This document shows positions 24,416 to 29,231 of a DNA stretch of 50,650 nt, in pieces (the first letter of the stretch is position 1; the number at the start of each line of letters is the position of its first letter). This DNA is from Methanomassiliicoccales archaeon (GTDB lineage Archaea > Thermoplasmatota > Thermoplasmata > Methanomassiliicoccales > UBA472). The translations under genes were made by a program, and so were the position numbers. The notes beneath the pieces are model-generated. The model searched no databases. It was not told where the DNA came from and saw nothing but the letters and a program-made list of their open reading frames with translations. Location: assembly GCA_028682915.1 (NCBI GenBank), contig JAJRAN010000076.1, forward strand, positions 1-50,650, in the 5' to 3' direction.

Positions 24416-25540
24416 GTGCTGAGCTTGCGCGTGGCTGGCATATGCAGGGACATCAACTGGCCTGAAGGCCTGCGCGGCGAGGTCATCGAAGAGATCGAGT
24501 CGGAGGAGGGCATGTTGCAGAGGCTCTCCAAACCAGTCCCCCGGTCGGCGTTCATAAACGCCATGGCCTTGATATTGATCGCGGTCAGCATCATCCTCAT
24601 CCTGATATTCCCCGCAGGCGTGATCGCATGGTTCATCGTCGCCTTCGTCCTCTATTCCTTCAATTTCATCATCCTTTTCCTGCCAACCACGAGGAAGGGG
24701 AAGCGAGACGAGAGCTGCCGCCGTACCATCGGCAGAGACTCGCTGGCACCGATAAATTACCTTCTAAAGAAGAAGAGAAAGCTCGCTGTGGAGGTGGGGC
24801 TTACCATGTTCCTAGGGGGAATGGTCCCCCTGGCACTGAGCTTCTTCGTCCTCTTCGGCATAGGGCTCCTGCTGGTCATCTACTTCGCATTCCTAGCTGT
24901 TACTCTGGACCCCTCGGTCGCTTGGCCAATAATAATCCAGGTGCTGGTCATCATCCTGTTCTTCATAGCGATGGTGCTGATCAGGCCGGACACGCAAGGC
25001 TTGACCAGGATAGCCAGATCGTTCCATAACCGTTACGAGGGGGCCCGCCAGAGGAGCAGGTGGTACACCGCTGCCATCGTCCTCGGAATCGGCCTCGTCG
25101 CCGTGGGCTTGTCGATGCTCCTCGTGGGGGCCATCCTCCTTACCGGTGGCGTGTTGGGGGAGGTCATAACCGAGGGCGGGCGGACAGGCGTCAGCTTGCT
25201 CCTGATCGCCTTAGTCTTCGTTGTGGAACTGGTGGTGATGCGCCATTTCCAGGCGGTATCGAGCCGGAAGATGGCTAGGACGTTGATCAGAAACAGGTTG
25301 GAGATACTGAGGAAGGATGTGCTCGAGCCCCTGACCGCCCTGCTCGACCAAGGCAAGTACGCAGATGAAGAAGGCTATGACAAGGAGGAGTTCGAACGCA
25401 TCAAGACCAACTTCTTCAACGTGGTCATCTACGCGGTCTACGAGCTCAACCTCTTCGGGTACTCATCCGTCTACATCGTAGGGCCCAATGTCAAGTATCT
25501 GATCGATGAGAGGGTCCTCCCATATGTCGGCGGGGTTTGA
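24416..25540 (+). CDS. Polytopic membrane protein of unknown function
   Basis: This 374-residue protein starts with GTG. It has about six membrane segments (near 46-66, 68-90, 128-155, 163-188, 216-240 and 250-268), a basic loop (TTRKGKRDESCRR) after the second, and a ~100-residue soluble C-terminus with EILRKDVLEPLTALLDQGKY and a YVGGV end. I do not recognise a family. It precedes, on the same strand, the three-gene set at 25604-27562, but a 63-base gap with its own TATA-like sequence separates them. Confidence 0.72.
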   Translation: MLSLRVAGICRDINWPEGLRGEVIEEIESEEGMLQRLSKPVPRSAFINAMALILIAVSIILILIFPAGVIAWFIVAFVLYSFNFIILFLPTTRKGKRDESCRRTIGRDSLAPINYLLKKKRKLAVEVGLTMFLGGMVPLALSFFVLFGIGLLLVIYFAFLAVTLDPSVAWPIIIQVLVIILFFIAMVLIRPDTQGLTRIARSFHNRYEGARQRSRWYTAAIVLGIGLVAVGLSMLLVGAILLTGGVLGEVITEGGRTGVSLLLIALVFVVELVVMRHFQAVSSRKMARTLIRNRLEILRKDVLEPLTALLDQGKYADEEGYDKEEFERIKTNFFNVVIYAVYELNLFGYSSVYIVGPNVKYLIDERVLPYVGGV

Positions 25541-25603
25541 ATCGCTGACTAACTATGACATTAACAAAAGGCTATTAGCCCTCGTCCTCCTTTTGCCGCT
25601 CAC

Positions 25604-25801
25604 ATGGGAAAAAAGGAGCAAGTGGCCTCGATCCTGCAGATGATTGGCGGGAACGCGGACCAGGCCGAGAAGGTCGTGGACGAGGTGGACCGTTTCTTCG
25701 ATAACCTGAACGCGGAGATCGAGGACTGGAAGATCTCCATGGAGGAGTTCAAGGACGGGACTAGGATCTTCGCCAGGGTGCAGGTTCTCATCAAGAAGTA
25801 G
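25604..25801 (+). CDS. Small helical protein A (WKxSxEExKxGxR motif)
   Basis: This 65-residue protein has a helical N-terminal ~38 residues (QAEKVVDEVDRFFDNLNAEI) and a C-terminal strand-like end with DWKISMEEFKDGTRIFARV. The C-terminal motif W-K-x-S-x-E-E-x-K-x-G-x-R recurs in the small protein encoded on the other strand at 27597-27770. It is the first gene of a likely operon: the next start is seven bases after its stop. Function unknown. Confidence 0.72.
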   Translation: MGKKEQVASILQMIGGNADQAEKVVDEVDRFFDNLNAEIEDWKISMEEFKDGTRIFARVQVLIKK

Positions 25802-25808
25802 GTGTGCG

Positions 25809-26726
25809 ATGGCCGATAAGAAGAGGGTCGAGCCGGAGGAGGACGACAAATGCACCCATCCCCTGATATGCGCCGAGGAATGGGAGGACTCGGAGGGCGC
25901 GAAGGTCATTGCCGAGTTCCACAAGGATGGGGGGCCGGACGAGGAGAGGCGGGTCGAGGAGGACCTGGACGCTTTCGAGAGATACTGGCAGAAGAAGCAG
26001 GGCATCAATTTCCAAGGGGAGTATCACAAGGAGGGCGCTCCCTTCTTGGAGGAACCCTCCGGATGGGACGGTCATAGACCACGCAGCCAAGAGGCCGTAG
26101 GGGAAGCCCGGCCTGCTACCCAGCCAAGTCTAGCGACCGTATTCGAAGAAGAGGAGAAGCCTGAAAACCTCGCGGCAAGAGAGGCGTCAGAACCGGCCAT
26201 ACTCACCGATGCCGGCATTGTGAAGGGCGAGGCTACTTTGGCCCCATCACCACCGTTGGAGCATGGGAAGGAACCCAAGGAGCCTTTGAAACTCACCGAG
26301 GTCGTGGACATCAACACCCTGGAGGTGATCAGCTATTGGATCTTCCGTGTAGCCTTCGGAAAGGAGCTGCACATACCTATCAAGAAGGAGGGCCTGGCGG
26401 ACATCGACGTCCACATCAAAAACAAGGAAGTGATCGTGAACACCAACCAGCTCTACTTCGCCTTCCCAGAGTTGGTGGTCTGGCACATAACCTATACCCA
26501 TAAGGGCAGGCCGATATTGGAGATAGGCCGCGGGGTGAAGAAGGGCATGAAGGTGCACCGCCTGAACGCCGTGCGGTTGCTGATGGAGGTATGGATGGGC
26601 AGCAGGAAGGCGGAGAAGGCTCCCAAGAAGACCGGCAAGGGCGCATCCGCACCAATACAGGGCGGGAGTAAGAGCCAGAAGGCAAAAGACAACCAGGACC
26701 TAAAGGAGAAAGGGGACATCACCTGA
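25809..26726 (+). CDS. Acidic/basic low-complexity protein with a central folded domain
   Basis: The 305-residue product has an acidic N-terminal ~170 residues of low complexity, then a compact domain (about 175-265; contains VISYWIFRVAFGKELHIPIK and VHIKNKEVIVNTNQLYFAF), and a Lys-rich tail (KAPKKTGKGAS). I do not recognise a family. A TAGGTG site precedes the ATG. The stop shares one base with the kinase-like start (TGATG), so the two proteins are probably made together and may interact. Confidence 0.7.
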   Translation: MADKKRVEPEEDDKCTHPLICAEEWEDSEGAKVIAEFHKDGGPDEERRVEEDLDAFERYWQKKQGINFQGEYHKEGAPFLEEPSGWDGHRPRSQEAVGEARPATQPSLATVFEEEEKPENLAAREASEPAILTDAGIVKGEATLAPSPPLEHGKEPKEPLKLTEVVDINTLEVISYWIFRVAFGKELHIPIKKEGLADIDVHIKNKEVIVNTNQLYFAFPELVVWHITYTHKGRPILEIGRGVKKGMKVHRLNAVRLLMEVWMGSRKAEKAPKKTGKGASAPIQGGSKSQKAKDNQDLKEKGDIT

Positions 26727-27562
26727 TGAGCAAAGAGCACGAGGAAGCGGACCACCTCCAATCCCACAGGGAGTATTTCCGAGAGGTGGTTAGGAAGATT
26801 CATCAGATATCCGCCCAGAGCTTCGGGCTGAGTCAAGTGTCCGTTCATCCTCTCGGCTCGGGTGGGTCGCGCCTTTCGATTCCGGTGAAGATAACCGGGA
26901 CGGATGGGAATGGCAAGAGCACGAAGCTCTTCGGAAAGATCCTTGGCAACGCCGATATCATGACTGCCAGGACCATCCAGACCGTGAAGAACCTATATCT
27001 GCAAATGAACGCGCATGACCCGATGTTCGACTTCGCTCGTGACACCCGGGACATGGCCCTACACCAGTACAGCACCATGAAGGCCATCTACAATCTGGGC
27101 ATCCCCACGGCCAAACCTTTGGGCTGCTACCAGCTGAACGACGTGCTCTGGCTGCTGGTCTATGAGTTCCTTGATGCCAGGCCGGTCACGGACATTGGTA
27201 GGATGTCGCTGGAGCAGATCGACGAGGTGTTCGGTTGGCTCAAGCTGATGCACAAGAAGGGGATCCATCATGGCGACATCAAGCCAGACAATGTGATGTT
27301 GGGGGACAAGCTCTACATCTTGGATGTGGGGAGATATCTCGAGGAAGCGCCCCAGTCGCAGAAGCAGGCCTACGACCTCGCCTGCCAGATCGCGTCGTTC
27401 CTTCCGTTCCAGCCTGCGGACAAGATAGTCAGCGTGGCCAGGAGACATTACTCCAAGGAGGACATGAGGGCGGCCTCGGAATACCTCGATCTGATCCAAA
27501 GGCGGATGGACCTGAAGTTCAATGACGAGACAAAGAGCGAGCTGCTGCGCCTGATGCAATAA
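26726..27562 (+). CDS. Protein-kinase-fold (RIO/APH-like) protein
   Basis: This 278-residue protein has the key residues of a protein-kinase-like fold: a candidate ATP Lys (K71 in FGKIL), the catalytic loop H182-G-D184-I-K186-P-D-N189, and a metal-site D200-V-G in place of DFG. The lack of a typical activation segment resembles RIO, Bud32 or aminoglycoside-phosphotransferase-like kinases rather than Hanks kinases. Its substrate is unknown; the coupled acidic protein and the small helical protein A just upstream are candidates. It is convergent with small protein B. Confidence 0.8.
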   Translation: MSKEHEEADHLQSHREYFREVVRKIHQISAQSFGLSQVSVHPLGSGGSRLSIPVKITGTDGNGKSTKLFGKILGNADIMTARTIQTVKNLYLQMNAHDPMFDFARDTRDMALHQYSTMKAIYNLGIPTAKPLGCYQLNDVLWLLVYEFLDARPVTDIGRMSLEQIDEVFGWLKLMHKKGIHHGDIKPDNVMLGDKLYILDVGRYLEEAPQSQKQAYDLACQIASFLPFQPADKIVSVARRHYSKEDMRAASEYLDLIQRRMDLKFNDETKSELLRLMQ

Positions 27563-27596
27563 GGAATTGACGCAGCCAGCATTTTTGATAAAAGGC

Positions 27597-27770
27597 TCAC
27601 TTGGGCTTGCTCTTCAAGAGGGCGATGGCGTGTATCTCCACCCTCATGCCCTCTTTGGTCTCCTCGACGGAGAACTTCCAGGTCTCCAAGGTCGCCTTCA
27701 GGTCCTTCAACATTGCCTTAAGTTCCTTGCTCTTCTCCCCTAGCTCAGCAGCGATGTCCTCATTTCCCAT
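27597..27770 (-). CDS. Small helical protein B, paralogue-like to protein A
   Basis: This 57-residue protein begins with a charged helix (residues 4-30; GEKSKELKAMLKDLKATLE) and ends with TWKFSVEETKEGMRVEIHA. The C-terminal motif W31-K-x-S-x-E-E-x-K-x-G-x-R43 matches protein A (25604-25801), although the N-terminal helices differ. A GGTGG precedes the ATG by about seven bases. It faces the kinase-like gene, 34 bases away. Function unknown. Confidence 0.68.
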   Translation of the reverse strand: MGNEDIAAELGEKSKELKAMLKDLKATLETWKFSVEETKEGMRVEIHAIALLKSKPK

Positions 27771-27899: not shown

Positions 27900-28214
27900 A
27901 TGGAGCGAATCCACGTTGGCAAGTCCCAGGACCTGAGGGATGGCGAGTCGAAGATGGTCCGGGCGGGCAAGAAGGAGATATTGGTTGTGAAGCAGGGAGA
28001 CAGATTCTATGCCATCGATGGGTGGTGCTCGCACATGGGCGCATCCCTGGAACAGGGCCAGGTCAGGGACGGGACCATCCGCTGCCGGGTGCACGGAGCG
28101 GTGTTCGACCTGGATACGGGCAAGGTGCTGCAGAACCTCCAGGCCAAGGACATGAGGGTCTACCCGGTGAAGGTTGAGGGCGAGGAAGTCTTCGTGGAGT
28201 ACTCCCCGCTTTGA
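27900..28214 (+). CDS. Rieske-type ferredoxin
   Basis: This 104-residue soluble Rieske domain has cluster-binding boxes CSHMG (Cys-x-His, about residues 43-47) and CRVHG (Cys-x2-His, about 62-66), with no membrane anchor or signal. It resembles small Rieske ferredoxins that deliver electrons to oxygenases or, in anaerobes, unknown partners. A TATA-like region (aataaataatcg near 27850) and a 40-base AT-rich leader precede the ATG. No obvious electron-transfer partner is adjacent. Confidence 0.9.
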   Translation: MERIHVGKSQDLRDGESKMVRAGKKEILVVKQGDRFYAIDGWCSHMGASLEQGQVRDGTIRCRVHGAVFDLDTGKVLQNLQAKDMRVYPVKVEGEEVFVEYSPL

Positions 28215-28296: not shown

Positions 28297-28479
28297 ATGC
28301 AGAAGTTGGGACTATGCGCGACCTGCGGGAGACCTGCCAACAACAGCTGCAGGCTATGCGGCCGATTGGTCTGTCCAGAGCATTTCTATCCTTATGCGGG
28401 TTTGTGTTCTCAATGCATACCGCCCTCGGAGAGAGGGCGCAGAAATGAGAGGAAGGAGCCTCCTGGGACTGTCATCTGA
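28297..28479 (+). CDS. HIT-like small zinc-finger protein
   Basis: The 60-residue product is built on four Cys/His pairs: C7-x2-C10, C18-x2-C21, C26-x2-H29 and C37-x2-C40. This is a cross-brace pattern like the zf-HIT or B-box type that binds two zinc ions. A basic tail follows (RGRRNERK). HIT fingers in eukaryotes act in snoRNP and chromatin assembly; the archaeal role is unknown. It lies 82 bases after the Rieske gene on the same strand. Confidence 0.7.
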   Translation: MQKLGLCATCGRPANNSCRLCGRLVCPEHFYPYAGLCSQCIPPSERGRRNERKEPPGTVI

Positions 28480-28503: not shown

Positions 28504-28995
28504 TCAAAGCAGCTTCTTCGCCTTTTCCTCGTCGAGGCCAATCGACTTCAATGAGTACTTCAGCGCCTTCTTGGCTATCATTCCCCTGGTGTTGTCGTCC
28601 AGGAACTGTTCCATGATGATCGGGGCGCGCCGGCTGTACTCCACCGCGAACTCCGAGTAATAGTAAGGCGCGTTATCAAGGTCTAGCTCAGCCGCCTTAT
28701 TATAGGCGGTCTCGGCCTCGTTCAACCGACCGGCATCGAAGCAGAAAGCGCCCAACGAGGAATAATAGAACGGGTTCTTCGGGTCCAGCTGTACGGCCTT
28801 GTTGTAGAGAGCCAGGACCTCCTCGACGCTGACCTTGGGCACGAGGACGGCCGCCTCCGCCTTGAAGAAGTAGGCTTCGGGGTTGTTGGGGTTGGCCTTC
28901 AGGGCTTTATCGAATTTCCCAAGGGCCTGTTGGTATTCCCCATCGCTCATGAGCTGCTGTCCCTGCTGAATCAACTTCTCAGCATCATCTGCCAT
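28504..28995 (-). CDS. TPR-repeat protein
   Basis: This 163-residue soluble protein has about three tetratricopeptide repeats (residues 10-110; for example GKFDKALKANPNNPEAYFFKA, in part, and LGAFCFDAGRLNEAETAYNKA). A C-terminal helical part follows, ending in SIGLDEEKAKKLL. TPRs bind partner proteins. I chose the ATG at 28995, which has GGTG upstream, over the TTG one codon earlier. It is convergent with the zinc-finger gene. Confidence 0.85.
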   Translation of the reverse strand: MADDAEKLIQQGQQLMSDGEYQQALGKFDKALKANPNNPEAYFFKAEAAVLVPKVSVEEVLALYNKAVQLDPKNPFYYSSLGAFCFDAGRLNEAETAYNKAAELDLDNAPYYYSEFAVEYSRRAPIIMEQFLDDNTRGMIAKKALKYSLKSIGLDEEKAKKLL

Positions 28996-29231
28996 CAAAG
29001 CACCATTGCCAATGAAAGAGGGGGGCGCAGATAAACGTTTTCATATGGATATTCGAAAGATGCGAGCTTCCTGCTCTGTTGAGCGCCACTCCTCTCTTCG
29101 ATCTCGCCGCTCTCTATGCGCATCGTTTCCTTGATAAATGTGCAAATTTCGCAGGAGCGAGACTTGGTTGTACCTACTGGCCAGGCAAATGTTATTACCT
29201 ACATACGGATTATATTGCCTGGGGAAGTCGG

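What the first reader, a model, noticed from the sequence alone, without database searches (positions are those of the whole stretch)
24416..27770. Unassigned locus: kinase-fold protein, low-complexity partner and two related small proteins
A three-gene operon (small protein A, acidic/Lys-tailed protein, RIO/APH-like kinase with HGDIKPDN and DVG) is coupled by a 7-base gap and a 1-base overlap. A second small protein B faces it and shares the motif WKxSxEExKxGxR with A. Repeated small proteins flanking a kinase and its coupled partner suggest a signalling or toxin-control module not named in any family I know.
Basis: partly seen in the sequence, partly recalled or inferred. Interest (0 to 1): 0.6.

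Follow-up and report, generated by a model that had tools for sequence, protein, structure and literature searches.

The report
Conserved archaeal kinase cassette, function unknown
A methane-producing archaeon and scattered relatives carry the same four neighbouring genes - an unusual kinase, its coupled partner protein and two sister small proteins - which look like an uncharacterised switch working by protein phosphorylation.

Summary
The order A-mid-kinase with B convergent recurs in 16 of 22 sampled genomes of the window's family (Methanomassiliicoccales). It also recurs, at lower identity, in other families and classes of the phylum, as a set. One relative has lost it, leaving a truncated A. 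A and B are paralogues (hhalign probability 96.8%). A, B and mid match no family in Pfam, NCBIfam, PHROGs, PADLOC or PDB. Mid is not just low-complexity: it has an exactly spaced repeat, W-x11-[YF]HK, and a conserved C-terminal domain resembling no solved structure. The kinase is RIO/Bud32/APH-like but below every curated cut-off; its catalytic residues are intact, yet an invariant Gln replaces the usual alpha-C Glu in all 24 members. In 11 cassette-bearing genomes a dual-specificity phosphatase gene adjoins the locus. I read it as a protein-phosphorylation module: kinase, coupled scaffold and two paralogous small subunits. That mechanism is inference; substrate and signal are unknown. The toxin-control reading is not supported.

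The parts
25604..25801 (+). Small protein A (65 aa), first gene of the operon; paralogue of B
25809..26726 (+). Mid (305 aa), putative scaffold/partner of the kinase; acidic disordered N-terminal half, conserved C-terminal domain, basic tail
25881..25931 (+). First copy of the mid repeat W-x11-[YF]HK (WEDSEGAKVIAEFHKDG)
25986..26036 (+). Second copy of the mid repeat (WQKKQGINFQGEYHKEG)
26292..26627 (+). Conserved C-terminal domain of mid (112 aa), predicted helix-strands-helix, no match among solved folds
26726..27562 (+). Atypical kinase (278 aa), RIO/Bud32/APH-like, overlapping mid by one base
27065..27067 (+). Codon of kinase Gln114, invariant in the family at the position of the alpha-C Glu
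27269..27331 (+). Catalytic loop HGDIKPDN to metal-binding DVG
27597..27770 (-). Small protein B (57 aa), convergent to the kinase; paralogue of A
24416..25540 (+). Multi-span membrane protein, next to the cassette in this family (divergent in most relatives, same strand in this genus); possible associate, not core

Best explanation
A chromosomal phosphorylation module made of one atypical kinase and three dedicated partners. SHOWN: A, mid, kinase and B are selected, co-inherited genes; A and B are paralogues; mid and kinase genes abut or overlap; the kinase keeps its ATP/metal-binding and catalytic residues but has Gln for the alpha-C Glu. INFERRED: mid holds the kinase, with its W-x11-[YF]HK repeats as docking sites; A and B, each a helix plus hairpin, form a (hetero)dimer that docks on mid or the kinase and tunes its activity, perhaps helping to set the active state that the missing Glu normally locks. 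The kinase then phosphorylates mid, A/B or an unlinked protein, and where present the adjacent dual-specificity phosphatase reverses the mark. The membrane protein may feed in a signal in this family.
For: Conserved order in 16 of 22 family genomes and set-wise presence across families and classes while flanking genes differ. Strict co-occurrence of mid and A in 300 genomes of the class. Kinase inverted in G348 yet the four genes remain together. Mid-kinase overlap of 4 bases in most loci. Intact catalytic residues and invariant Gln in 24 members. A/B paralogy. Exact repeat spacing in mid. Dual-specificity phosphatase, above the Pfam cut-off, beside the locus in 11 cassette-bearing genomes and just upstream of A on the same strand in G009.
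Against: No direct evidence of binding, activity or substrate. The phosphatase is missing from several family members and from the distant relatives examined, is elsewhere in the window's genome, and is kept by G006 after loss of the cassette. Not every member has two mid repeats, so a one-repeat-per-small-protein rule fails. A lone extra kinase copy exists in G010.
Confidence: 0.5

Rival explanations
1. A KEOPS/RIO-like machine: the kinase works as an ATPase that drives RNP assembly or RNA modification, with A and B as Pcc1/Pcc2-like small subunits and mid as a Cgi121-like or RNA-binding partner.
For: Best NCBIfam match of the kinase is Bud32 (7.5e-07, below cut-off). KEOPS also joins a RIO-like kinase with two paralogous small subunits that heterodimerise (PMC9889334). 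Mid has a basic tail.
Against: No Kae1, Pcc1 or Cgi121 match among the cassette proteins; the genome has a separate Bud32-like gene; the cassette is absent from most of the phylum, so it is not a universal housekeeping machine.
Confidence: 0.2
2. A regulated structural assembly: A and B co-polymerise or form a shell, and the kinase with mid controls assembly.
For: A and B are small, paralogous and more conserved than the kinase.
Against: No similarity to known shell or filament proteins; no structure was modelled for A or B.
Confidence: 0.12
3. A small-molecule kinase (APH/Kdo-type) with accessory proteins.
For: Weak APH and Kdo profile matches.
Against: Below cut-off; no metabolic genes consistently linked; three dedicated protein partners and a linked protein phosphatase are unusual for a metabolite kinase.
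Confidence: 0.1
4. A toxin-antitoxin or defence module.
For: Patchy distribution across the phylum; PADLOC kinase models (PD-T4-6, MkoA) match the kinase weakly.
Against: Those matches cover mainly the generic catalytic region and the partners have no defence match. No virus, phage or plasmid copy. Strong conservation of the small proteins and stable presence in one family.
Confidence: 0.05

Closest known systems
Bud32 / KEOPS complex
   Same: RIO-like kinase acting with small partner proteins, two of them paralogues in archaea (Pcc1/Pcc2, PMC9889334)
   Different: Kinase far below the Bud32 cut-off (28.8 of 125 bits); no Kae1, Pcc1 or Cgi121 match in the cassette; the genome has its own Bud32-like gene; patchy distribution
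RIO1/RIO2 kinases
   Same: Catalytic loop and overall motif order; closest named relative in plasmids is a haloarchaeal 'RIO1 family regulatory kinase/ATPase' (24.6% identity)
   Different: 18 of 22 bits needed; alpha-C Glu replaced by Gln; linked partners
APH / Kdo small-molecule kinases
   Same: Weak profile matches in the catalytic region
   Different: Below cut-off; no metabolic context; dedicated protein partners
Archaeal dual-specificity phosphatases (DSPc)
   Same: The linked phosphatase is a member by profile score and C-x5-R loop
   Different: It is a family-specific neighbour, not part of the core, and not in this window

Membership tests
Protein-kinase-like (PKL) superfamily | Catalytic and ATP/metal-binding residues (beta-3 Lys, catalytic-loop Asp and Asn, DFG-type Asp) | tested here: met
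   Lys71, Asp184, Asn189, Asp200 invariant in 24 members
Protein-kinase-like (PKL) superfamily | alpha-C Glu (E91), one of ten key residues in the survey PMC1821047 | tested here: not met
   Gln in all 24 members; Glu in the haloarchaeal relative and in the genome's own Bud32-like gene. The position is assigned from alignment and motif spacing, not from a structure
RIO kinase (Pfam RIO1) | Score over the curated cut-off | tested here: not met
   18 bits against 22 for the window protein; 10 of 16 relatives match at E up to 0.1, best 4.6e-8
Bud32 / KEOPS | Score over the Bud32 cut-off | tested here: not met
   28.8 bits against 125
Bud32 / KEOPS | Kae1, Pcc1 and Cgi121 partners in the cassette | tested here: not met
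   A, B and mid have no such match
APH | Score over the Pfam cut-off | tested here: not met
   21.6 bits against 23.2
Toxin-antitoxin / defence system | Recognised toxin, antitoxin or defence partner domains | tested here: not met
Toxin-antitoxin / defence system | Toxicity or protection in cells | not testable with these tools
   needs an experiment
Protein kinase (function) | Phosphate transfer to a protein | not testable with these tools
   needs an assay
Dual-specificity phosphatase (linked gene) | DSPc score over cut-off and C-x5-R loop | tested here: met
   Four of five scanned over 33.5 bits (about 44-46), G006 copy just under (33.1); Cys76 and Arg82 invariant in 11
Dodecin (considered for A/B) | Profile similarity to dodecins | tested here: not met
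   hhalign probability 2.6% (A) and 0.1% (B), against only two dodecin sequences

The most novel reading that the evidence does not exclude
A previously undescribed archaeal kinase complex in which two paralogous small proteins dock on a repeat-bearing scaffold and compensate for the missing alpha-C Glu contact, switching on a RIO-like kinase, with a phosphatase and a membrane protein added in one family: a multi-subunit, partner-activated protein kinase of the Thermoplasmata and their relatives.
Probability: 0.25. Interest if true: 0.72.

Novelty: new variant of a known kind. Interest (0 to 1): 0.52.

Why it matters
Protein phosphorylation in archaea is poorly understood and many archaeal kinases have no assigned partner or substrate. 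This cassette gives a kinase whose likely partners are already identified by four-gene co-inheritance across a phylum, three protein families absent from the libraries searched, and a signature active-site change. The partners and the role of the Gln can be tested directly by co-expression and kinase assay.

Tried and rejected
Toxin-antitoxin or defence module: no toxin or defence partners, no mobile copies. YHKxGAP as a general substrate motif: its DNA pattern occurs at most once per genome and only in the mid gene. Weak A hits in G255 and G258: antisense frames of an unrelated gene. Weak B hits in G112 and G508: short stretches inside long frames, judged chance. B without the cassette in G381: the contig ends close by, so a contig break is likely. 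Full-length mid structure: poor (pLDDT 49.9). C-terminal domain alone: moderate (74.7, pTM 0.59) with no fold match in PDB or viral libraries. Literature searches found no description of the cassette, though only open-licence papers are held.

Full report
OBSERVATION. The window holds A (25604-25801, +), mid (25809-26726, +), a kinase (26726-27562, +) and B (27597-27770, -), preceded by a membrane protein (24416-25540, +). Pfam, NCBIfam, PHROGs and PADLOC give nothing significant for A, mid, B or the membrane protein; the kinase matches APH, Pkinase, RIO1 and Bud32 weakly and below every curated cut-off. PDB sequence searches give nothing credible for A, B or mid.

WHERE IT OCCURS. A search of 100 relatives found full-length kinase homologues almost only in the window's own family. 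Around them tblastn shows A, mid and kinase in order on one strand and B convergent: 16 of 22 sampled family genomes, plus G040 of another family, where the short contig could be contamination. In most loci mid and kinase overlap by four bases, and in several genomes of one genus kinase and B overlap tail to tail by four bases. Profile searches extend the cassette to G180 and G297 in the class and to G348, G356, G393 and G402 in other classes of the phylum. These distant kinases are about 36-53% identical to family members, and the flanking genes differ. In G348 the kinase is inverted in place, yet all four genes remain together. In G297 and G402 the cassette is split by contig ends.

CO-INHERITANCE. 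In the same 300 genomes of the class, all 12 genomes with mid have A; the one further genome with a significant A (G006) has a copy cut off after residue 42, beside the retained membrane protein and phosphatase. That is a remnant of a lost cassette. The spread over the phylum is patchy; the kinase and mid-domain trees have long branches for the distant members and cannot separate repeated loss from transfer. No virus, phage or plasmid copy was found. Two close pairs give dN/dS of about 0.01-0.16, with A and B changing least at non-synonymous sites.

A AND B. Profile comparison of A against B gives 96.8% probability over 40 columns, E 3e-10 for the pair. The A profile finds B, and the B profile finds A (8e-9 in the window's genome), in whole-genome searches. 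Over 12 A and 13 B sequences E40, W42, K43, E47 and G52 are invariant. The pattern reads as a helix followed by a hairpin (from the sequence; not modelled). A dodecin relationship was tested and rejected.

MID. The N-terminal half is acidic and mostly low-confidence in the model, but it holds two copies of W-x11-[YF]HK with the same spacing in nearly every family member and in two distant relatives; G180 and G393 keep one copy each. The DNA pattern for YHKxGAP occurs at most once per genome, always in mid, with none for the reversed control. The C-terminal 112 residues are conserved across the phylum and are modelled with moderate confidence as helix, strands, helix (pLDDT 74.7, pTM 0.59); neither PDB nor the viral library has a match. 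The tail is basic.

KINASE. Lys71, His182, Asp184, Asn189, Asp200 and Asp217 are invariant in 24 members, so the active site looks competent. The residue 11 before the Gly of GIPTAKP, which is the alpha-C Glu in RIO and Bud32 kinases (my assignment from alignment and spacing), is Gln in all 24. It is Glu in the haloarchaeal RIO1-like relative and in the genome's own Bud32-like gene. A published survey of kinase families lists E91 among ten key residues and describes its replacement by Phe in two families (PMC1821047). G010 carries an extra lone kinase copy.

LINKED PHOSPHATASE AND MEMBRANE PROTEIN. In the window's family the membrane protein lies near the cassette, divergent in most genomes and on the same strand in the window's genus. 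Beyond it, in 11 cassette-bearing genomes, lies a small dual-specificity phosphatase (DSPc above cut-off in four of five scanned, C-x5-R loop invariant). In G009 it sits between the membrane protein and A, on A's strand, about 90 bases upstream. The window's genome has one on another contig. In G393 a HAD-family gene sits between kinase and B. These links suggest reversible phosphorylation, but G006 keeps the phosphatase and membrane protein after losing the cassette, so the tie is not obligatory.

MECHANISM. Shown: four co-inherited genes, paralogous A and B, abutting or overlapping mid and kinase, intact catalytic residues, Gln at alpha-C. Inferred: mid is the kinase's scaffold; A and B pair and dock on mid or kinase; activity is directed at protein and reversed by the phosphatase where present. 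The strongest rival is a KEOPS-like or RIO-like ATPase role; KEOPS also joins a RIO-like kinase to two paralogous small subunits (PMC9889334), but membership fails on score, on partners and because the genome has its own Bud32-like gene. Small-molecule kinase, structural assembly and toxin or defence readings are less likely, for the reasons given in their entries.

VERDICT. The cassette is a conserved unit not named in any library searched here. I rate it a new variant of a known kind (a kinase with dedicated partners), interesting chiefly because partners and active-site change are directly testable.

Noticed in passing
L139:8045-8167(-) (G006): A is cut off after residue 42 next to the retained membrane protein and phosphatase: remnant of a lost cassette.
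   Followed up: yes
L037:6836-7669(-) (G010): A second, lone kinase copy without A, mid or B beside it.
   Followed up: partly
L147:4256-6408 (G348): Kinase inverted relative to A and mid while the four genes remain together.
   Followed up: yes
L149:8680-9324(+) and L168:9168-9806(-): A HAD-family hydrolase gene sits beside B in one distant family, between kinase and B in G393.
   Followed up: partly
G000:C79:7580-7945(-) and L198:5295-5666(-): Further copies of the dual-specificity phosphatase away from the cassette; in G003 the second copy lies beside a Rieske-type ferredoxin gene.
   Followed up: partly
window 27900-28214(+), 28297-28479(+), 28504-28998(-): Downstream of B: a Rieske-type ferredoxin, a small cysteine-rich (zinc-finger-like) protein and a TPR-like protein, shared only with the sister genome G001 (L024).
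   Followed up: partly
L149:4856-6511(-): PAS-PAS-DUF835-winged-helix protein upstream of the cassette in the distant genus of G393 and G402.
   Followed up: no
L025 (G040): The only cassette in another family of the same order lies on an 8.5 kb contig and branches among the window's family in the kinase tree: transfer or assembly contamination.
   Followed up: partly
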